Shown here piece by piece: positions 3,701 through 50,648 of a DNA stretch of 64,000 nucleotides (its first letter is position 1; every line of letters begins with the position of its first letter). The stretch lies in assembly GCA_948474755.1 (NCBI GenBank), contig CAOLHI010001478.1:682001-746000 (forward strand), read 5' to 3'. The notes under the pieces are model-generated. The model had not been told where the DNA came from. It did not search any database and worked only from the letters and a program-made list of their open reading frames with translations. Position numbers and translations under genes: made by a program. The DNA is from Ctenosaura bakeri (taxonomy: Eukaryota; Chordata; Lepidosauria; Squamata; Iguanidae).

Positions 3701-4424
3701 TGTTTAAGATTGCTGCCTTAAGGGGAATAAAGACGGAAGTAAAATAGATTGTTGCAGCATGGGGAAAAAGAAAAAGAAAAGTCAAAACAGTAAAAGTAAG
3801 CACAGGCATATAAAACATTGCCTTTTAATTTATAACAGTTGGATGCAAGAGGAGAATAAGAAACTTTAAATGAAGTTTAAGATCAAGATCAAGTACTATT
3901 ATTTAATAGAAAAGACAACTTTCAAAATGAAAACTCTCAGACTATAATGAATAAGATGTCCATTTCCATAGCAGGCATCAGCTAACAGTCTGAAACAGCA
4001 ATTTGTGATAGATAAGGACTTGTGTGTTTCTGTTTTTGTTTGAAGTACTTACCATTCCCTGTAATCTATTTATTTTCTATTACAGCTATATCTTGTTTAT
4101 TCATAGTCTTAAATAATATAAAACCTTGTGAGGTTTTTTGGTCAGGCGGGAAGGTGAAAGCCTCCTCACCCCCACACATATGGAATAAGATGTTAGAGAT
4201 TAAATTCTATAGACAGAAGTGACATTTATCTGGCTTTGATCCCAAGCACACTTACTTAGGGGCAAGCCCACTGAAGGCAATAAACAAACCTTCAAGAAAA
4301 TGTGTGTTTATAATGGAGTTATACAAGTCATTCACAGCACAGTCCTATGCATGTCTACACAAAAGTAAGCTTCATTGAGTTTACTGGAAACTAAAGTACT
4401 GATAGCAACTTTCCCCAAGCTGCG
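3701..4424. other. Intergenic stretch, no gene seen
   Basis: AT-rich unique-looking sequence with no exon, SINE or LINE that I can recognise. A purine-rich run near 3760-3780 is low-complexity. Confidence 0.4.
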
Positions 4425-4856: not shown

Positions 4857-4860
4857 GGGC
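4857..4860. repeat. Target-site duplication of provirus, left copy (GGGC)
   Basis: GGGC directly abuts the TGTTGCAG start of the left LTR and is repeated directly after the CA end of the right LTR at 11103-11106. A 4-bp duplication is the gammaretroviral integrase footprint. Confidence 0.85.
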
Positions 4861-5149
4861 TGTTGCAGAAAAATAGAGATCGAGACCCACGGAAAGAAAA
4901 TTCAAAGTTTATACAGCTGGCTAGGCTCAGTGGAATAGCTTCCAAAGACCGAGCCCCCACTTCATCAATTCACAATGCTTTATACATTTTTTTGCACAGT
5001 GTTATCTTTAGTACAGTGTCATCATGTTCATACATGGCGTCAGTCCAAACTACGAGCTACATACTACAATAGACAAGAGACCATTCTGTGGCTGTGCATT
5101 CTTTAATTTTGCAAGTAGAAATCTACTCTACTTTGTTTCATCTTCCTCA
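4861..5149 (-). mobile_element. 3' LTR of minus-strand provirus
   Basis: 289 bp starting TGTTGCAGAA and ending TTCCTCA on the plus strand, so TG...CA on either strand. It is a direct repeat of 10821-11102 with roughly 15-20 mismatches and one ~9-bp length difference by eye. It is the 3' LTR because env lies to its right in minus orientation and a purine tract on the minus strand (5150-5161) abuts it. The position equivalent to the AATAAA of the other LTR is changed here (TTTATA instead of TTTATT on the plus strand). Confidence 0.9.
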
Positions 5150-5161
5150 TTCCCTCCTTTT
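5150..5161 (-). promoter_or_regulatory. Polypurine tract of provirus
   Basis: On the minus strand this reads AAAAGGAGGGAA immediately before the TGAGGAAG start of the LTR. Retroviral plus-strand DNA synthesis is primed from such a tract directly upstream of the 3' LTR, so position and composition both fit. Confidence 0.8.
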
Positions 5162-5193
5162 ATGCTAAATTCTACACAGCAATTTAAGCATAA

Positions 5194-6304
5194 TTACTTG
5201 GTTTGGGCCATTATGGCATAAGTGGCAGCTTTCCCATCCATAATTTTACTCATTGCAGATTGAAAGCAATTTAGTAAGCAAGGTACGATTATACATATCA
5301 TTAGCCCTATCATTAATACAAAAAGAAATCCCACGAACAGTGTCCTCAACCATGCTAAATTCGGGAACCAGGAAGTTAACCATGCCCACATGTCTGCAGA
5401 CTGCAAGTATGATTTCCTAACATTAGATACCACAGAGTGTATTTTCTCCACATTGGTTTCTACTACTCCAGACTCATTAACATAATGACAACATATGGTA
5501 TTTAACTATACACACAAGCCTCCTTCTCAGCTGAGGAAGTAATCCAGGACTATTTTATACTAAGGGCAACTCCTGCCATGGGGAACATTATGGCTCTGAA
5601 TCTTTCACTCTCAGTTAGGTATGTGTTGTCAGGATCATACCCAAAGCTTTTCATCATATACTCTCTTCAACCCATGCCATCCAAATTGTCTATCCCAGGC
5701 CTTGACAGGTTGGTTGAGGGGGTGAAACTGAACCCCTCCAATTGAGAGAGAACCAATAGTGCAGATACCATTCCATACCGGGGGAAGTGCTTTCCCTGCC
5801 CAATAACCACAAAGCCAATACATCCCAGGAGGCAGATCATAAATCCACTGACCATTATGCAAACTGGCTTCTTCTTGGAGCTTAATTAAAGGGGAGTGGC
5901 CCCTACGGTTCCCATACAACTCGATGAAGGTGTCACTGCAACTGAAAGGGATACTGATATTGGGATACCTTCCTGGGCAGGCCTGTGGAGATTCAGGGAG
6001 TTCAAATAAGCCTTGGGCTCTTCTGCGAGGAACCATATAGAGTAATACTATTCCATCCAGTCAGATTCATGGTACCTGCTGGCATTACAGGCCACCCTTG
6101 CATGTGTGAGCTTGGCCCATGAAGACATACCCAGCAATTACTGACATTCAGGGTGCTCAAGATCTGATTGACTAATTGGTGAAACCAATTCACTTCCCAG
6201 CCTCCCTGGCTCAATATCACTCTCATCATAAACAACAATCCCCATATCCACATATTGTCCAGACTCGCAATATCACTGTCTGAAGTGATACAATATATAG
6301 CCAA
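5194..6304 (-). pseudogene. env: Endogenous retroviral env, broken
   Basis: Minus-strand envelope remnant. A hydrophobic leader-like run (GLLFMMRVILSQG) near 6250 is followed by a short surface-subunit region with a CWVC motif (CXXC type) around 6130. A later CGYWAGKALP stretch is typical of gamma-type Env. The transmembrane part keeps a CX6CC motif near 5485 (one of the six positions is now a stop) and a C-terminal membrane anchor (5250-5340). Stops and a frame change near 5635, and several stops between 5470 and 5620, break it. The surface subunit is short for the family, and the region where the furin site, fusion peptide and first heptad should lie is largely missing. It cannot encode a working envelope as it stands. 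Confidence 0.85.
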
Positions 6305-6512
6305 AGCCTGCCGCTGCCCCTATACCTTCTCCATCCCACAATATTGTCTCCCACATTCAGGATCTGGCCATACGAAGAGCAGTGCGTCCTTGGTAGCAAT
6401 TGCTGTAGGGCCTAGTCCCAGTCTTCTTTCCGCTCCAGATGGGGATCTGGCCATGTGCCAGGTGTTCAGCTTCCCAGAATGTGAACACAGCAGGGCCTAG
6501 TCCCAGTCTTCC

Positions 6513-7466
6513 TTACTGCTTTGTGGTAATTTTCATCTTCAAAGATTGCCCTATGACTGGGGCAACAGTCCTGTCAATGTGGGCCCTTTTTATCCTAGTG
6601 TAATGCATCCAAGGCCTCAACCCTGCTACCTTCACTGAGGTGGGGGTTGCCAACATAACCTGGTAAGGCCCCCTCCACCTGAAACTGAGTGGCCCTCCTT
6701 TCCAATCCTTCACCCATACTTCATCTCCTGGTTGGAAGGGGTGTGCTTGAGTCTGTAGGACGGGAAGATGCTGCTCTAATGTGTACTTCCTCATTTTACT
6801 CAGGGCTTTCCCTAAGGCACTAACCTCCTCCTGTAAGGTCCTATTCCCCAATTCCTTTGTATCTCCCCTCAACCCACTCAAAATAGTAGGGGGTCGTCCA
6901 TACATCAACTCGAAAGGGGATAGCCCTGTGGTTTGATGTGGCGTGCACCTTATCCTGAAAAGAGCTATGGGTGGGGCATGCAGACACTTCAACTTTGTTT
7001 CTTGGCACAATTTGGACAACTCTGTCTTTAGGGTTTGATTCATCCTTTCCACCTTTCCTGAACTCTGGGGTCAGTAAGTGCAGTGTAGCTTCCAGGTGAT
7101 TCCATGAGTGGTGGTTAAGTCCTTGACAACCTTGTGGTTGAATGCAGGTCCATTATCTGAGTCTATATGATGTGGTAGTCCGTGTCTGGGGATGATATCT
7201 CAAAGCAGGGCCCGTACGACCTCCCACGTCTTCTCGGTGTGGTAGGCTTCCACCCACCCAGTGTAAGTACAAACAAAGACTAGGAGGTAGCGATAGGCTC
7301 CGACTCAGGGCAATTCAGTGAAATCTACTACCGGTGATTCAAAAGGACTACTTCCTTGGTACTGTTGTCCTTCCACCATCTTGGGTCCCTGTCAGGGATT
7401 AATTTTGGTGCACAACTGACAGCTTGAGGAGGCCAGGGTGGCAAATCCATGTATCCCGTTAAGATA
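6513..7466 (-). pseudogene. pol: Endogenous retroviral pol remnant: integrase
   Basis: Minus-strand integrase of gammaretroviral type. In order it shows the tail of the zinc domain (CQLC, 7410s), the first catalytic Asp (VDFTE, ~7325), the second (DSDNGPAF, ~7150), the catalytic Glu (VERMN, ~7045), and a C-terminal GPYQV (GPY/F) module near 6635. Four in-frame TGA stops interrupt the catalytic core near 7390, 7305, 7200 and 7070; the stretch 6513-7052 is open. Everything of pol upstream of the zinc domain (protease, reverse transcriptase, RNase H) is absent. The remnant begins abruptly where the NUMA1-derived segment ends (about 7466) and is in a different frame from it. Confidence 0.92.
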
Positions 7467-8910
7467 GACTTTCCTTTTCCAGCAGCTGCCTATGCACGAT
7501 GGACATCTCCTGTTCCAGGCTGTTGACCAGGCTGGCCTTCCTCTCGGATTCCTGGAGGCAACGTGACATTTGCTCCTTCCAGCTCTTTTCAGACTTGCCC
7601 TTTTCCTGGTCCGAGGCACACAGAGAAGCCAGGTCCTTCTCGGCTCTCGACATGGCCTCTCTGCTCTGGGCCAGTTGCTCTCCCTTCTCAAGGAGACCCC
7701 TCTTCAGCTTCTCCACAGCAGCCTCCTGCGTGGACCAGGAAGCCTCCAGCAGCTTCTCCTGCTCAGAGGCTTGCTGCTTGTGCTGCACCACCTCCTGCTT
7801 AACAGATTCCATCTCCATTTGCCACTCTTGCCCCGAGGCTGCCACGACCTTCTCCAGTTTGGCAAGAGTGCTCTGATGCTCCTTGTACTGCCACTCAAGG
7901 TTCCCCATCTGGCCATGCAGTGCCTCACACTCCTTCAGCTGTTTCTCATAGAGCTTCCGGCTGGAAGTACACTCCCGTTCCCAAAGGTGCTTCTCCTCCT
8001 CCAGGTTTTTCAGGGAGAGGTCCTTGGAGTGCACCAGGGACTTGATACTCTTCAGCTCTGGTTCCCGAGTCCTGGCCACCTCCAGGAAGCCTTGCAGCTC
8101 ATTCTGCATTTTGGCTTCCCTCTCCTTCAGTGCCTCCATGGAAGCCAGTTCCCCTTTCAGCTTGCTGACGGTCTTCTGCGGGTCCCTCAGCTCCTCACTG
8201 CGAGAGTCGTTCTTCAGGTGCAGTTTCTCCAGCTCCCTCTCTTTCTCCCCAACCAGCTCCTGGGCTCTGGCCACCTCTTCCTGGAGGCCAGAGACCTCCA
8301 CGTGGTGCTCACTGGTGAGGTTCTGCAGCTGGACCTCCAGCGCTGCCTTGCCAGCCTTTTCTGTGGTTAGCTCTGCCCTGGCTCGCTCCTCCTCCCCTGC
8401 CAGCCGCTTCACTTCCTCATCGCGCAGAGTTAGCTCCCGTGTCTGCTGCTGCATGGGCTCCTCTAACTTGCTCTCCAGTGACTTCACCTGGGTAGAGAGC
8501 TGCTTCACCTCATGCTCCTTCTCCTTCAGGGAAGACCTGATACTGGAGAGGCTCGACTGGTCTTTATGGCTATGCTCACCCAGTTGCTTCACTCTGGCCT
8601 CCAGCTCAGCTCTCTTGAGTTTCTCCTCGGCCAGGTCTCTGGTGGCAGCTTCGAGGGCCTCTGCTGCTTCACGCCCATTCTTTTTCGCTTTTGCTGCATT
8701 CTGGGCTGTTTCTTGGTGAACAGTCATCATCTCCTCCTGCAGAGAGGCAATCTCAGCTCTGAGCTTCTCCTTGGCACTCTCCACCACCTTGACCTCAGAA
8801 TGTGCAAGAGACAAACTGGCCTGAAGCTCAGCCAGAGTTTCTTGGTGTTTGGTGCTCAGGTGCCTCATCTGCGTTTCCGCTTCTGCCACCTTCGCTTGCT
8901 CAGCCTGCAA
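7459..8910 (-). CDS. Open frame of 483 codons within the NUMA1-derived segment
   Basis: This is the uninterrupted part of the captured NUMA1 coiled coil. It is rich in Glu, Lys, Gln, Leu and Ala in heptad-like spacing, with no membrane segment or folded-domain motif. The first Met is simply the first ATG in the open stretch; NUMA1 similarity extends upstream of it in another frame. The last three residues and the TAA (7459-7461) lie at or past the junction with integrase. The frame equals that of the upstream gag remnant. Whether it is transcribed or translated cannot be seen; it could be a passive remnant. Treat it as a candidate only. Confidence 0.45.
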   Translation of the reverse strand: MQAEQAKVAEAETQMRHLSTKHQETLAELQASLSLAHSEVKVVESAKEKLRAEIASLQEEMMTVHQETAQNAAKAKKNGREAAEALEAATRDLAEEKLKRAELEARVKQLGEHSHKDQSSLSSIRSSLKEKEHEVKQLSTQVKSLESKLEEPMQQQTRELTLRDEEVKRLAGEEERARAELTTEKAGKAALEVQLQNLTSEHHVEVSGLQEEVARAQELVGEKERELEKLHLKNDSRSEELRDPQKTVSKLKGELASMEALKEREAKMQNELQGFLEVARTREPELKSIKSLVHSKDLSLKNLEEEKHLWERECTSSRKLYEKQLKECEALHGQMGNLEWQYKEHQSTLAKLEKVVAASGQEWQMEMESVKQEVVQHKQQASEQEKLLEASWSTQEAAVEKLKRGLLEKGEQLAQSREAMSRAEKDLASLCASDQEKGKSEKSWKEQMSRCLQESERKASLVNSLEQEMSIVHRQLLEKESLS

Positions 8911-9200
8911 TTTCTGCAGGAGCTGCTCCCGGTCCCTGCTTACTCTTCAGCTCTTGGACTTTCTCTTCCTGCCTCCCACATTCGCCTGTCTCCCCTCTGG
9001 CAGCCAAGGACAATTCTGCCAGCTGCTGCTGAAGCTCCTGGACTTTGGTCCTGGATTCTTTCCCCAGCTACTGCACCTGAACTTCCAGCGCCAGTCTCTT
9101 GGCCTTCTCCTCATCCATCTCCTGCCCCTTCCTCTTCCCCATTTAGAGTCACCCTTCTGAGTGCTCAATGCAGCTGCCAACAACTCCACCTTCTTATGCA
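7466..9200 (-). pseudogene. NUMA1: NUMA1 central coiled-coil segment captured in a provirus
   Basis: The minus strand encodes the long coiled coil of nuclear mitotic apparatus protein 1, which tethers dynein and organises spindle poles. Recognisable matches to vertebrate NuMA are ERKASLVNSLEQE near the end, KAALEVQLQNLTSEHHVE in the middle, and HQETLAELQASLSLAHSEV near the start; the order is colinear. A 483-codon frame is open from 8910 to 7459. Upstream (9200-8911) the similarity continues in two frames with one stop (VQ*LG near 9068) and two frameshifts (about 9150-9115 and near 8945). NuMA's globular head, microtubule-binding and NLS regions are absent. It lies in proviral sense between gag and integrase, with no poly(A) or duplication of its own. 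Much of this coiled coil is in one giant exon in vertebrates, so lack of introns does not prove a cDNA origin. The fragment starts and stops inside the gene, so it is not a native locus. Confidence 0.9.
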
Positions 9201-9201
9201 T

Positions 9202-9900
9202 TCACCTGTGGCCTCCTTCTTGCTTGGCATCGGAGACCAGCTGGCTAACCTGTCTAAGTGGAGCCACTACTTCCTCTTCATCCCTTTCCACTTCATCTTG
9301 GGCTTCACAAAGGGGTTTCGCTTGTATTCTTTTAATTTCCTTGACGTTTATCTTCTGCCCGATACTAAGGGGGTGTGTGGATCCCCCTTTCAGGTCTGAC
9401 AAGTCAGGATATAGTGCAGGGGGTGATGGCGGCGATGATAGTCGGTTCCAAGTTAAGGATGGGGCTAGCCGGGTTCCCCAGTGGTGCTGCCACTGCCTGC
9501 TCTGCCAGGGCTGGACCTGGGGTTGCCACAATATATGGGGGTGGTGCGCTGGGTTCCTCTGAGGGGGCTATCTAATACTACAGGGTCCCTGCCGAACTCC
9601 TTCCAAGTTTTATCCTTCATCAGCACCATAACTTTACTGCACTGTTCCTTACATTTTGCAAGCCACGGGGGGATTCAGTTACTATAATTCCCATGAATCA
9701 ATATAGGGCTACTGGTCAGAGTGTCCGGGGTTCCCCAGCACCACTGCATACACAGCCCTTATCTTTTCTGGGTCCAAACTTCCTTCTGACGGCCATCCCA
9801 GTTTGAATGATAGCCATTCTACCTCACACAAGTTTCGCAACCTGTGATAATGGGGCTTCTCATTATCTAGACTTGGCCCTCTTCAGGTAAACCAAGGGTT
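9202..9900 (-). pseudogene. gag: Endogenous retroviral gag remnant: matrix and p12-like region
   Basis: Minus-strand gag of gammaretroviral type. A matrix segment near 9834-9690 carries the W-x-S-F-x-x-GWP and AVVLGNPGH phrases of MLV-like matrix. A proline-rich p12-like stretch follows at 9531-9380 with an LYPDL late-domain-like motif. Near 9240 comes a PLRQV phrase such as starts capsid. Stops (TAG near 9711, then several around 9670-9570) break it. Matrix and p12 parts share one frame. The frame ends in TGA at 9204-9202, directly at the join with the NUMA1 segment, which continues in the same frame. Capsid proper and nucleocapsid are absent. I could not fix the start codon. Confidence 0.85.
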
Positions 9901-10820
9901 AATGAGGTGTTGGGGTGAGGTTAAGTTTTGCAGCTTTAAAAATCCATCTCCCCTGTAAAAGCGGGAAGAGGAAAATCCAGAAATCACTCATTCCTAAAGA
10001 GTGGCTTTGTCTGACAAGGGCAGCCAGCCCTGCAACCAAAAATCCCCCTCTCCCCTCCTCCCTGCTGCAAGGAGGAAGAGTAAAGGAAAAAAACTTCGAA
10101 AGCCTGTTTAGACAAACAATGCTGCTTTGCCCACTCCCCCTCCTCCTCCTTGCTTGATTTCTGGCAGGACTCAAAGGGACAGAGAGAGTGAGAACCCAGA
10201 AGCCTGTTTTCTGTAAGTTAACCCTTTCTTGAAGTTTTTCAGCATACTTTGGAGCGGCATTTGTCGACTGCTACCCCTACCCATTTTCCTCCCTGTTGGT
10301 AACAACACACAGTAGGTTGGGGGGATTGGACTGTGGGTAAGGGGTCCCAACAGTCCAACACAACAGGGTTTTAGACAGTCACACACACGCACTGACCCAG
10401 GCACCCGGTCTCTCAACAGTATGCACTACGAACTGCGATGCCAGTCACACTGTCTTTCACCCAAACAACACGGCCATCCTCCTTTTTCTTGTCCTTCTAA
10501 GGAATCCTGCAGTTTCAGTAGCTCCCCTCTGGGGACACTCTACTAGGGCAGGTCCTAAGGGGGTGATCAAGCCCCTCTTCTCCCCATTTCACACACTTTG
10601 CGGGGAGGTACTTACCTAAGGCTGTGTCTATGTTGAATTTCCAAACCGTCCTGAGCTGGCAAACCATTCCCTGGGTCTGATGCCCTCACGAGGAGGACCG
10701 TCCGACAAAATGTCAGGGGCGCCCAAGGTCCCTGTTGGTGGGGCACGGATACCGGGGAAGCGGTGGCTGCTTAAGTGGGCAAAAGGCCCCTCCGATCCTG
10801 GACAAAGAGCCCCCAGAAAA
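9901..10820 (-). other. Proviral 5' leader
   Basis: About 900 bp between the primer-binding site and gag on the minus strand, the usual place of packaging signals. It is C/G- and pyrimidine-rich in blocks and has no clear coding sequence. I cannot point to a specific packaging structure. Confidence 0.6.
10797..10815 (-). promoter_or_regulatory. Primer-binding-site-like sequence (tRNA-Pro type)
   Basis: Five nucleotides inside the 5' LTR, the minus strand reads TGGGGGCTC, then TTT, then GTCCAGGATC. Many gammaretroviruses have TGGGGGCTCGTCC..GGAT here, complementary to the 3' end of proline tRNA. The extra three T residues and one substitution make this copy imperfect. The position next to the LTR supports the call. 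Confidence 0.65.
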
Positions 10821-11102
10821 TGTTGCAGAAAAATAGAGATCGAGACCCAAGGAAAGGAAATTCAAAGTTTATTCAACCGTCTGGAATAGCTTCCAAAGAC
10901 CAAGACCCCCCCCTCATCAATTCACAATGCTTTATACATTTTTTTTGCACAGTGTTATCTTTAGTACAGTGTCATCATGTTCCTACATGGCGTCAGTTCA
11001 AGCTACGAGCTACATACTACAATGGACAATAGACCATTCTGTGGCTGTGCATTCTTTAATGTTGCAAGTAGAAATCTACTCTACTTTGTTTCATCTTTCT
11101 CA
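10821..11102 (-). mobile_element. 5' LTR of minus-strand provirus
   Basis: 282 bp, TGTTGCAGAA...TCTTTCTCA on the plus strand, repeat partner of 4861-5149. On the minus strand it contains AATAAA (plus-strand TTTATT at about 10869), a poly(A) signal. The primer-binding site and leader lie to its left, which makes it the 5' LTR. I do not see a clear TATA box. Confidence 0.9.
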
Positions 11103-11106
11103 GGGC
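11103..11106. repeat. Target-site duplication of provirus, right copy (GGGC)
   Basis: Matches the four bases at 4857-4860 and directly follows the CA end of the right LTR. Confidence 0.85.
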
Positions 11107-18722: not shown

Positions 18723-18920
18723 CAACATTGACTAACACCATATGCCAAAGGGCCAATCCAACCAGAGTTAAGCATTTTAAAACCAATGGATTCAATGGAA
18801 GAGTTATGCACACACTAATGTGTCTCACTTTCACATTAGAATTCGAGAATATTTAACTTGGGCCACATTGTGCCCCAAGGGTAGCTCACCATATGTTCTT
18901 CAACATTTAAAATATTTCAT

Positions 18921-19715
18921 TTGCTGAGCTCTGACAGATATCTACACAAAAGCTCCAACCATCACCCAGGACCAAAAAAGGAGCACAATAAAACTCTGGT
19001 AGACCGCGCAAAAAGAATATGTGAACCCCATGTCCTGAAAGATGAACTGAACCATTTAAACTGGGCTCAACAGGACAATGGTTACTCTGGTTCAGACATC
19101 AGGAAAGCCTCTAGACTTGGGGGAAAACACAGCAGTGAAGATAAGCAGCCAACCAAAGGGAATGTGTTTTTACCATACATTAAAGGGATCACTGACCGTA
19201 TAGAGAAACTGATGAAGAAACATAACCTCCAAACAATATACAGACCAACCAAGAAAATTCAAATGCTATGCTCAGCAAAGGACAAGAGGGATCCTCTAAT
19301 TTCTGTGAGAGTTTACTGCATACCTTGCAGCTGTGGGCAGGTCTACATAGGGACTACAAAACGCAGCATCCAAACACAAATCAAAGAACACGAAAGACAC
19401 TGCAGACTGATCCACCCAGAAAAATCAGCAGTAGCAGAACATGTTATAAACCAACCTGGACACAGAATGCTTTTTGAAAGCACAGAAATTCTGGACCATT
19501 CTGACAACTACTATGTCAGACTACACAGAGAGGCCATTGAAATCCATAAACTCATGGACAATTTCAACAGGAAAGAAGAAACTCGGAAAGTAAACAAGAT
19601 TTGGCTACCAGTACTGAAGAACACTAAAATCAAGACTCTGGAAGGCCCTCTACAGGGGACAATACAATGGATTGCTAATGTACTTAACACACTGTTATGC
19701 ATATCCCCTGACTAA
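18921..19715 (+). CDS. GIY-YIG endonuclease domain frame of a Penelope-like element
   Basis: 264 codons with no internal stop. The Met start is only the first ATG in the open stretch; element similarity begins a few codons earlier (SSDRYLHK phrase). The conserved Tyr-x-x-Pro-Cys...Tyr-Ile-Gly pair, the Arg of TKRSI, the His of KEH and the Glu of EAIEIHK are all present. A lone endonuclease of a selfish element is expected to be inert here. Confidence 0.6.
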   Translation: MLSSDRYLHKSSNHHPGPKKEHNKTLVDRAKRICEPHVLKDELNHLNWAQQDNGYSGSDIRKASRLGGKHSSEDKQPTKGNVFLPYIKGITDRIEKLMKKHNLQTIYRPTKKIQMLCSAKDKRDPLISVRVYCIPCSCGQVYIGTTKRSIQTQIKEHERHCRLIHPEKSAVAEHVINQPGHRMLFESTEILDHSDNYYVRLHREAIEIHKLMDNFNRKEETRKVNKIWLPVLKNTKIKTLEGPLQGTIQWIANVLNTLLCISPD

Positions 19716-49440: not shown

Positions 49441-49687
49441 ATTGTGGATTTTGCTTTGCTCTTACAAACCCAGGTAGGTACCTCCATTTTGTACCCATGT
49501 TTTACTGGTTCACAGTCAGTGAATATGCTGTCTTCATTGGGCTCTATGGAGGGGTGACTTTTTTTCTGGTTTTTTTTTAACCTCTGAGTAACATAGAGTT
49601 CATCTGAATGTGCTGACACCTCCCTTTTCCCAGTACCTCCTTTCTGCTAGCAATCCTATCAGCACTTTACCATCTCCATTTACTGTC

Positions 49688-49702
49688 AAAGGGGATGATG
49701 CG
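49688..49702. repeat. Target-site duplication of L1, left copy
   Basis: AAAGGGGATGATGCG, identical to 49688+961 at 50649-50663. Confidence 0.85.
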
Positions 49703-50648
49703 GAGAGGATGTCAAGAAGGAGAGGATGTCAAGAAATTGGTACATATATGCATATATGGTGGAACTGTAATAGGATAATGGAATTTTGGCAAAAGGTTTT
49801 TAAAGAAATAAAAGAGATAACAGGAGTTGAGATACCAATATGTCCAAATATAGGGTTGTTGTCTATATATAATAAACTTGAGTGTACCCAGGTAATGAAT
49901 GAATTAATAACAAATTTGTTAACTGCAGCGAGGTCAATAATAGCAAAAAAATGGAAAACAAATGAAAAAGTTCAAATAGAGGAATGGTATAAAGAAGTGT
50001 GGAAAATTGCAGTTAATGATAAATTAACTTGTAGAATTAGATTTATGAAAGGTTTTGTAAAAGGGAATGATTTTGAAGAAATTTGGAAAATATTCTTGGA
50101 AAAACCTTTGATAAGAGATGGTAAAGCTACCCTTTCACAAGAAGAATGGCAATTTTGGAAAGTGTATTAAATAAAAAGTTGGTTCCGGGGGGGGGGTATT
50201 CACCTTTTTTGTTAATTATGTGGTGTTTTGTTTACTTGGATTTGTATTAATTTTTTTTTCATAACAAAAAAAAAGTAAGTTGAAACATAATTGGCTTTGG
50301 GGAGTGGGTTTACTTTTAGAAATAGTTTGATATGTTAAGTAATAAGATTATGTTTAGTAATAGCAATAGAGTAAATGTAAGGGAAAAATATAGAATTAAG
50401 AATGAAATTATTATAATAATAATAAGTATAAGGAGAATGAGATCTAGAGATAGGTAATAAAAGTATATAAGTAGTATGATGTAGAATACGCTGAATAAGT
50501 ATATGATTGTAATGGTATTGGAGAGAAATAATAATGTAAGCTTGTTTTTGTTGAAATTTCTCCCACCCGCACCTATTATGTGTATCACATGGTGTTTTAC
50601 TTTTTTGTTCTGTTTTTTTCTTTATAATCAATAAAAATTTAATTAAAA
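49703..50648 (+). mobile_element. L1-type LINE, 5'-truncated
   Basis: About 946 bp. It encodes the end of an L1-clade ORF2 protein on the plus strand up to the TAA at 50168-50170: the HIWWNCNRIMEFWQKVFKEI phrase at about 49755-49812 is the C-terminal zinc-knuckle-like region, and the frame ends EEWQFWKVY. A 3' UTR of about 450 bp, partly AT-rich, follows. It ends with AATAAAAATTTAATTAAAAAA (50629-50650). The 15-bp duplication is intact, so the insertion is fairly young. Confidence 0.9.

What the first reader, a model, noticed from the sequence alone, without database searches (positions are those of the whole stretch)
4861..11102. Endogenous retrovirus that has captured part of the host gene NUMA1
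Seen: paired LTRs, GGGC target duplication, purine tract, primer-binding site, and gag matrix/p12, integrase and env remnants all on the minus strand. In the same sense, about 1.7 kb of NuMA coiled coil replaces capsid through RNase H. Known: acute transforming retroviruses have this layout, a host gene replacing part of gag-pol and often joined to gag. Inference: this is a germline fossil of a transducing retrovirus. Endogenous copies of such viruses are rare, and I know of no report for NUMA1.
Basis: partly seen in the sequence, partly recalled or inferred. Interest (0 to 1): 0.96.

Follow-up and report, generated by a model that had tools for sequence, protein, structure and literature searches.

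The report
Retrovirus family carrying four host genes
The window holds one copy of an old, defective retrovirus family that picked up a piece of the host gene NUMA1 and then spread through this animal's germline with it, and relatives in the same genome also carry pieces of other host genes, joined in a fixed order.

Summary
Confirmed and extended. Window 4861-11102 is a minus-strand gammaretrovirus-like provirus holding 1,655 nt of NUMA1 at 7471-9125. The parental gene lies on contig C2434, where the segment falls inside one open frame. Of 19 proviral contigs compared, 16 show both NUMA1 junctions at the same host bases, the other 3 one. Of 12 full segments, 11 share a 12-nt deletion; the twelfth has a larger one there. 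Four of four copies read at both outer ends have different 4-bp duplications. So NUMA1 was captured once and moved with the virus. Correction: capsid loss is separate (5 copies keep capsid sequence); NUMA1 replaced nucleocapsid to the start of integrase. New: relatives carry histone H1, BRAP and a C-terminal-motor kinesin (KIFC3 by recall); 38 of 39 places with two or more share strand and order. BRAP exons are joined, so spliced mRNA was captured. Selection tests on NUMA1 are mixed; a passenger moved in trans is likeliest. Known kind (crocodilian ERVs), unusual in the number of captures.

The parts
4857..4860 (.). target-site duplication GGGC, at the 3' LTR side
   Evidence: flanks
4861..5149 (-). 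3' LTR
   Evidence: LTR-LTR K2P 0.060
5150..5161 (-). polypurine tract next to the 3' LTR
   Evidence: read
5194..5505 (-). env transmembrane remnant
   Evidence: Pfam TLV_coat 1.5e-09
5635..6060 (-). env surface-subunit remnant, assigned by position only
   Evidence: open frame; no Pfam hit
6513..7470 (-). integrase, broken into several frames in this copy
   Evidence: Pfam MLVIN_C 8.4e-17 in 6513-7070; frames; 308 first-look candidates in own genome, 40 scored
7471..9125 (-). NUMA1 coiled-coil segment, same sense as the virus; private 7-nt insertion near 8947 and a premature stop in the native frame (shared with copy C18)
9126..9226 (-). gag remnant abutting NUMA1: end of capsid / start of nucleocapsid, by comparison with sibling C543
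9227..9230 (-). approximate site of the capsid deletion (about 640-680 nt present in copies C18, C2522, C78, C19, C127)
9231..9567 (-). gag p12-like region, by position
   Evidence: no Pfam hit
9709..9882 (-). gag matrix remnant
   Evidence: Pfam Gag_MA 2e-05, below cut-off; sibling C4349 3.6e-11
10799..10816 (-). primer-binding-site-like stretch next to the 5' LTR
   Evidence: read; tRNA pairing not tested
10821..11102 (-). 5' LTR
11103..11106 (.). target-site duplication GGGC, at the 5' LTR side
   Evidence: flanks

Best explanation
This is one member of a replication-defective, gammaretrovirus-like ERV lineage. It captured a within-exon piece of NUMA1 once, by template switching at short homologies, in place of nucleocapsid through the start of integrase, and was then copied many times in the germline by retroviral proteins supplied in trans. 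The lineage also took in pieces of histone H1, BRAP and a C-terminal-motor kinesin. Shown: one capture, movement with the insert, 4-bp duplications, short homology at both junctions, intron-free BRAP in one copy. Inferred: RNA as the NUMA1 source, help in trans, passenger status, order of the captures.
For: Parental open frame C2434:244897-248635, 1246 aa. Both junctions at the same host bases in 16 of 19 proviral contigs, one in the other 3. A 12-nt deletion shared by 11 of 12 full segments, the twelfth (C3987) having a 26-nt deletion across it; every frameshifting indel is private among the 12. 4-bp duplications GCCC, AGGG, CCAG, AGAG in 4 of 4 copies read at both ends. Short homology at the junctions, counted by eye: 18 of 19 nt at the 3' side (sibling C4349), 7 of 8 at the 5' side (sibling C543). 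NUMA1-free sibling C543 with protease, RNase H and a weak CCHC match. H1: Pfam 4e-16, PDB H1.2 3e-31. BRAP: joined exons in C1204 against separated parental exons with GT/AG ends; both BRAP2-domain rows of the genome lie upstream on the same contig and strand. Kinesin: motor exons downstream of coiled-coil exons on C36. 38 of 39 multi-gene places share strand and order. Relocation test near neutral for the NUMA1 frame.
Against: The NUMA1 piece lies within one open frame, so DNA capture is not excluded for it. No complete helper was found: in siblings C543 and C4349 the spacing leaves too little room for a full reverse transcriptase, and C595 was not judged. H1 sits in different gag positions in different copies. 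The names NUMA1 and KIFC3 rest on recalled human proteins. Against passenger status: 10 of 27 comparisons fell below p 0.05, 9 of them towards fewer amino-acid changes among shared differences (5 for changes in nearly all copies, which may be host-branch; 4 for changes in four or more copies) and 1 the other way.
Confidence: 0.9

Rival explanations
1. A NUMA1 retrocopy or gene fragment inserted independently into an already integrated provirus.
For: Processed copies are common in vertebrate genomes (general knowledge).
Against: Same junctions in 16 of 19 proviral contigs, different flanks in 4 of 4; by eye no duplication or poly(A) at the insert's edges, which are short viral-host homology.
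Confidence: 0.02
2. Segmental duplication, not retroviral copying, multiplied one chimeric provirus.
For: Full copies differ by 7.3% on average, an age at which duplications could be blurred.
Against: Four of four copies read at both ends have different flanks and different 4-bp duplications directly at the LTR ends.
Confidence: 0.02
3. The captured NUMA1 (and other coiled coils) encoded a protein useful to the virus during its spread.
For: No frameshift shared among 12 full copies; NUMA1-BRAP joined in frame in C1204 and BRAP-kinesin in frame in C4930; shared differences richer in synonymous ones: in nearly all copies 20 S, 12 N (p 0.0003), in four or more copies 36 S, 49 N (p 0.03), its transversions alone 7 S, 4 N (p 0.001).
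Against: Differences in nearly all copies may reflect constraint on the host gene; transitions in four or more copies show nothing (p 1.0) and changes in 2-3 copies lean the other way; the relocation test gives 86 S against 79.0 expected (P 0.17) and 6 stops against 8.2 for shared changes; gag runs into NUMA1 out of frame in 12 of 12.
Confidence: 0.15
4. Independent captures of NUMA1 by two ERV lineages (the 92% group and the more divergent group).
For: Integrase pieces only 72-78% alike between the groups in the 4 of 6 divergent copies where they were in reach, and NUMA1 ends at host local 4967-4992 instead of 5566. Of sites with clear states, 28 set the divergent group apart from host and main group.
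Against: C552, which carries H1 and BRAP like the divergent group, starts NUMA1 at the same host base 3907; C4130 and C1560 carry H1 beside a full NUMA1 segment of the main group; 11 sites unite both groups against the host and 3 unite the divergent group with the host (the 11 may be host-branch changes).
Confidence: 0.08

Closest known systems
Crocodilian ERVs with captured KIT ligand (CrocERV29) and nectin3 (CrocERV31), Chong et al. 2014, PMC4299795 (passages, section 15)
   Same: Endogenous multicopy reptile ERV lineages carrying host coding sequence, which the authors read as captured mRNA.
   Different: There one host gene per lineage, between pol and env or in place of env, with frames under purifying selection by the authors' tests. 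Here up to four host genes in the gag-pol gap of one lineage, fragments only, selection unclear.
Acute transforming retroviruses (src named; two-gene viruses such as erbA-erbB, mil-myc, myb-ets recalled)
   Same: Host coding sequence in viral sense, often replacing part of gag-pol, leaving a defective virus that needs a helper (recalled).
   Different: Here no growth-control gene, no gag fusion frame for NUMA1, and inherited through the germline in many copies.
Plant LTR retrotransposons with captured genes, such as maize Bs1 (seen only in the search listing; details recalled)
   Same: Defective LTR elements carrying pieces of several host genes (recalled).
   Different: Plant retrotransposon, not a gammaretrovirus-like ERV.
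Readthrough and template-switching model of oncogene capture (review PMC4997597, passages seen)
   Same: [quoted passage not shown] short homology at junctions and joined exons fit.
   Different: No provirus next to any of the four parental genes was looked for, so the readthrough step is untested.

Membership tests
Gammaretrovirus-like (class I) ERV | Integrase, matrix, capsid and TM of MLV type | tested here: met
   Pfam MLVIN_C 8.4e-17, TLV_coat 1.5e-09, Gag_MA 2e-05 but below cut-off; Gag_p30 7e-12 and rve 4e-17 in copy C18
Gammaretrovirus-like (class I) ERV | 4-bp target duplication | tested here: met
   4 of 4 copies read at both outer LTR ends; in 3 further copies tried (C994, C2522, C18) both ends could not be read
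Gammaretrovirus-like (class I) ERV | Reverse-transcriptase phylogeny | not tested
   No reverse transcriptase was found in the window copy; no such tree was built
Transducing retrovirus | Host coding sequence in viral sense between viral sequences, with a separate parental gene | tested here: met
Transducing retrovirus | Provirus moved after acquiring the host sequence | tested here: met
   Both junctions identical in 16 of 19 proviral contigs, different flanks in 4 of 4
Transducing retrovirus | Capture through RNA | tested here: inconclusive
   Met for BRAP in C1204 (joined exons); undecidable for NUMA1 (within one open frame); H1 genes are intronless (recalled)
Transducing retrovirus | Host sequence fused in frame to gag (common, not universal) | tested here: not met
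   NUMA1 out of frame with gag in 12 of 12 full copies
Acute transforming retrovirus | Causes cell transformation | not testable with these tools
   No expression or phenotype data

The most novel reading that the evidence does not exclude
The slot where nucleocapsid was lost became a repeated landing place for host mRNAs encoding coiled coils or basic proteins (NUMA1, BRAP, kinesin, H1), and the captured pieces did something for the element: either coiled coils stood in for nucleocapsid in particle assembly, or gag reading NUMA1 in the shifted frame gained a basic tail (58 codons, K+R 17, D+E 2, pI 12.0 when computed from the host sequence) that bound RNA. That would be natural replacement of nucleocapsid by host sequence.
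Probability: 0.06. Interest if true: 0.93.

Novelty: new variant of a known kind. Interest (0 to 1): 0.79.

Why it matters
Host-gene capture by retroviruses is known mostly from tumour viruses (general knowledge). Here one genome holds a series: family members without the insert, copies with NUMA1, copies with H1 and NUMA1, and copies with H1, NUMA1, BRAP and a kinesin, with readable junctions and splice evidence. That makes the order, mechanism and fate of serial captures testable by comparison, and shows that captured sequence can persist in an inherited lineage without being an oncogene.

Tried and rejected
Independent insertion of NUMA1 and segmental duplication were rejected on junctions and flanks. 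Selection on the NUMA1 frame: 27 Fisher comparisons gave 10 below p 0.05, in both directions; a relocation test found nothing firm. Selection on the gag-frame tail: 22 synonymous against 17.4 expected, P 0.12. Protein search of the NUMA1 segment scored 7,999 candidates and found none at E 0.001. PDB sequence searches found nothing for it, for the C1204 frame (best E 0.27), for the parental BRAP exon, and only weak hits for the kinesin piece (best E 0.018). A Pfam accession that I recalled for the NUMA1 N-terminus (unchecked) did not complete, nor was the search for the parent of the about 230-nt piece between NUMA1 and kinesin in the divergent group. No LTR was found in the fetched ends of copy C18. 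Papers: among the titles and abstract starts listed in searches (3 of 4, 20 of 123, 5 of 5, 15 of 59, 1 of 1, 6 of 16 and 8 of 27 papers) none reported an ERV with NUMA1, H1, BRAP or KIFC3; the library holds open-licence papers only.
Full report
Observation. LTRs at 4861-5149 and 10821-11102 are flanked by GGGC. Pfam finds matrix (2e-05, below its cut-off), the MLV-type integrase C-terminal domain and env TM.

Parental gene. A protein search of the same 1.9-Gb genome gave 94 matches (86 of 832 candidates scored). One, contig C2434, lies in a 1246-residue open frame, 244897-248635; in the 9.6 kb fetched around it, the window's provirus matches nothing but the NUMA1 segment. The other strong matches carry stops, are split into pieces or, in the window, have a frameshift. 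Downstream in the same orientation are short frames that I recognise from recalled human NUMA1 (VEQLEVYQKEQAKQ and MEKAKTHYNAKKQENQ). The name NUMA1 rests on recall plus gene structure; no tool named it.

One capture, many copies. Against the host frame, matches in 19 proviral contigs begin and end at the same bases, local 3907 and 5566: both in 16 of 19, the 5' one in 18 of 19 (C4666 is not covered there), the 3' one in 17 of 19 (C4431 stops at 5502, C4194 is deleted there). Of 12 full segments, 11 share a 12-nt deletion and the twelfth, C3987, has a 26-nt deletion across it; every frameshifting indel is private; three stop codons are shared, by 4, 2 and 2 copies. Both outer LTR ends were read in 4 copies (window, C526, C613, C4130): each has its own flank and 4-bp duplication. 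C994, C2522 and C18 could not be read on both sides. LTR pairs differ by K2P 0.042 to 0.081 in 5 copies; NUMA1 differs from the host by 0.061 to 0.078 in 19 copies, and between the 12 full ones by 0.073 on average. I infer that the capture is not much older than the spread. No clock for this species was available.

What was replaced. Family members without NUMA1 exist: the integrase query gave 308 first-look candidates, 40 scored, several on contigs outside the NUMA1 list. I read stretches upstream of integrase from three (C595, C4349, C543). C543 runs from capsid end and nucleocapsid start (zinc knuckle 0.0096, below cut-off) through protease (1.8e-07) and RNase H (9e-19) to integrase. By spacing, most of the reverse transcriptase is missing there and in C4349; C595 was not judged. 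NUMA1 therefore replaced nucleocapsid through the start of integrase. By eye, host and virus share 18 of 19 letters at the 3' junction (C4349) and 7 of 8 at the 5' junction (C543), as expected for template switching. Capsid is separate: C18, C2522, C78, C19 and C127 keep about 640-680 nt between p12 and NUMA1; ten (window, C994, C526, C613, C3987, C4194, C2225, C462, C4431, C2358) lack it with what looks like the same join; C4130 and C1560 have an insert there; C420 could not be judged, C4666 was not tested.

More host genes. The insert in C4130 contains a histone H1 globular domain (Pfam 4e-16, PDB histone H1.2 3e-31). A genome search with it gave 41 rows, some of which look like ordinary H1 genes (not checked). 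Six copies of a divergent group were read (C1812, C6604, C1947, C564, C1832, C1204); they carry shortened NUMA1. C1204 continues in frame from NUMA1 into a second coiled coil. Its parent, C2870, holds that stretch in three exons spread over 4.4 kb, with GT and AG at the introns, while the provirus has them joined, 30 nt short after one acceptor. Both rows for the BRAP2 domain in the genome lie upstream on C2870 in the same strand, so this is BRAP. A further piece follows BRAP in frame in C4930. Searching with it gave 33 rows; C36 has it in two separate exons, and kinesin motor exons lie downstream in the same strand (122 of 217 candidates scored): a C-terminal-motor kinesin, KIFC3 by recall. 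Four other places with this piece alone (C657, C2040, C1051, C6491) were not read. Grouping the search rows gives 65 NUMA1 places including the parent, the weakest of them unread, and 39 places with at least two of the four genes. In 38 of the 39 all lie on one strand in the order H1, NUMA1, BRAP, kinesin; C349 is the exception. Most of the 39 are known from search rows only. C4930 has all four by search; C552 has NUMA1, BRAP and H1 by reading and the kinesin piece by search. C552 starts NUMA1 at the same host base 3907, which ties it to the same capture.

Did the insert do anything? Gag enters NUMA1 in the wrong frame in 12 of 12 full copies. In 7 of 12 that frame ends in the same residues, in 2 more at about the same place; C526 stops early, C78 is shifted by an indel, C3987 runs on to the end of the 300 nt translated. 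Read from the host sequence the shifted stretch is 58 codons and strongly basic. In the native frame, 19 copies: private changes 146 synonymous against 153.6 expected, shared ones 86 against 79.0 (P 0.17), tail in the gag frame 22 against 17.4 (P 0.12). Fisher tests against private changes were below 0.05 in 10 of 27: 5 for changes in nearly all copies (20 S, 12 N overall, p 0.0003), which may lie on the host branch; 4 for changes in four or more copies (36 S, 49 N, p 0.03; transversions 7 S, 4 N, p 0.001; transitions p 1.0); 1 in the opposite direction. The in-frame NUMA1-BRAP and BRAP-kinesin joins, each seen in one locus, are suggestive only. I read the inserts as passengers, with some room for early function.

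Mechanism. Shown: single capture, short homology at the junctions, movement with the insert, joined BRAP exons. Inferred: viral RNA co-packaged with host mRNA, template switching, integration by proteins from other proviruses. A review passage describes this route for oncogenes (PMC4997597, passages). A search listing calls BRAP2 highly expressed in testis (PMC4377634, start of abstract); germ-cell expression of the captured genes would fit germline capture but was not tested.

Novelty. Crocodilian ERVs captured KIT ligand and nectin3 (PMC4299795; passages, section 15), so the kind is known. No report of these genes, or of four captures in one ERV lineage, was among the papers listed in searches, which cover open-licence papers only and showed only part of the hits.

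Noticed in passing
L003, L007, L015 (C4130, C2522, C420): Three copies lack most of env, with the same join of window positions about 6096 to 5213 (for L003 and L007, for L015): an env-deleted subgroup.
   Followed up: no
L021, L023, L024, L025, L027 (C4431, C2358, C462, C2225, C127): Five copies share a deletion of about 180 nt inside NUMA1 (window 8082-8258), between two 20-nt near-repeats.
   Followed up: partly
L003:700-1140, L008:710-1130, L061 (sense): About 430 nt of unassigned sequence sits inside the H1 module, between a start resembling H1 (MSETAP) and the globular domain, by eye; possibly another host gene.
   Followed up: no
L041, L043, L044, L045: About 230 nt of unassigned sequence lies between NUMA1 and the kinesin piece in the divergent group, where C1204 has BRAP. 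The parent search did not complete.
   Followed up: partly
L060 (C4930:5300-9500): The NUMA1 piece of this copy is split by a LINE-like element with long reverse-transcriptase-like frames, by eye.
   Followed up: no
C2434:242001-243150 (L039): A tyrosine-recombinase-like frame, perhaps DIRS-type, by eye, lies about 2 kb upstream of the NUMA1 open frame; a stretch next to it recurs in L042.
   Followed up: no
window 18885-19712 and 49592-50167: Two open frames of 276 and 192 codons that look retroelement-derived, by eye.
   Followed up: no
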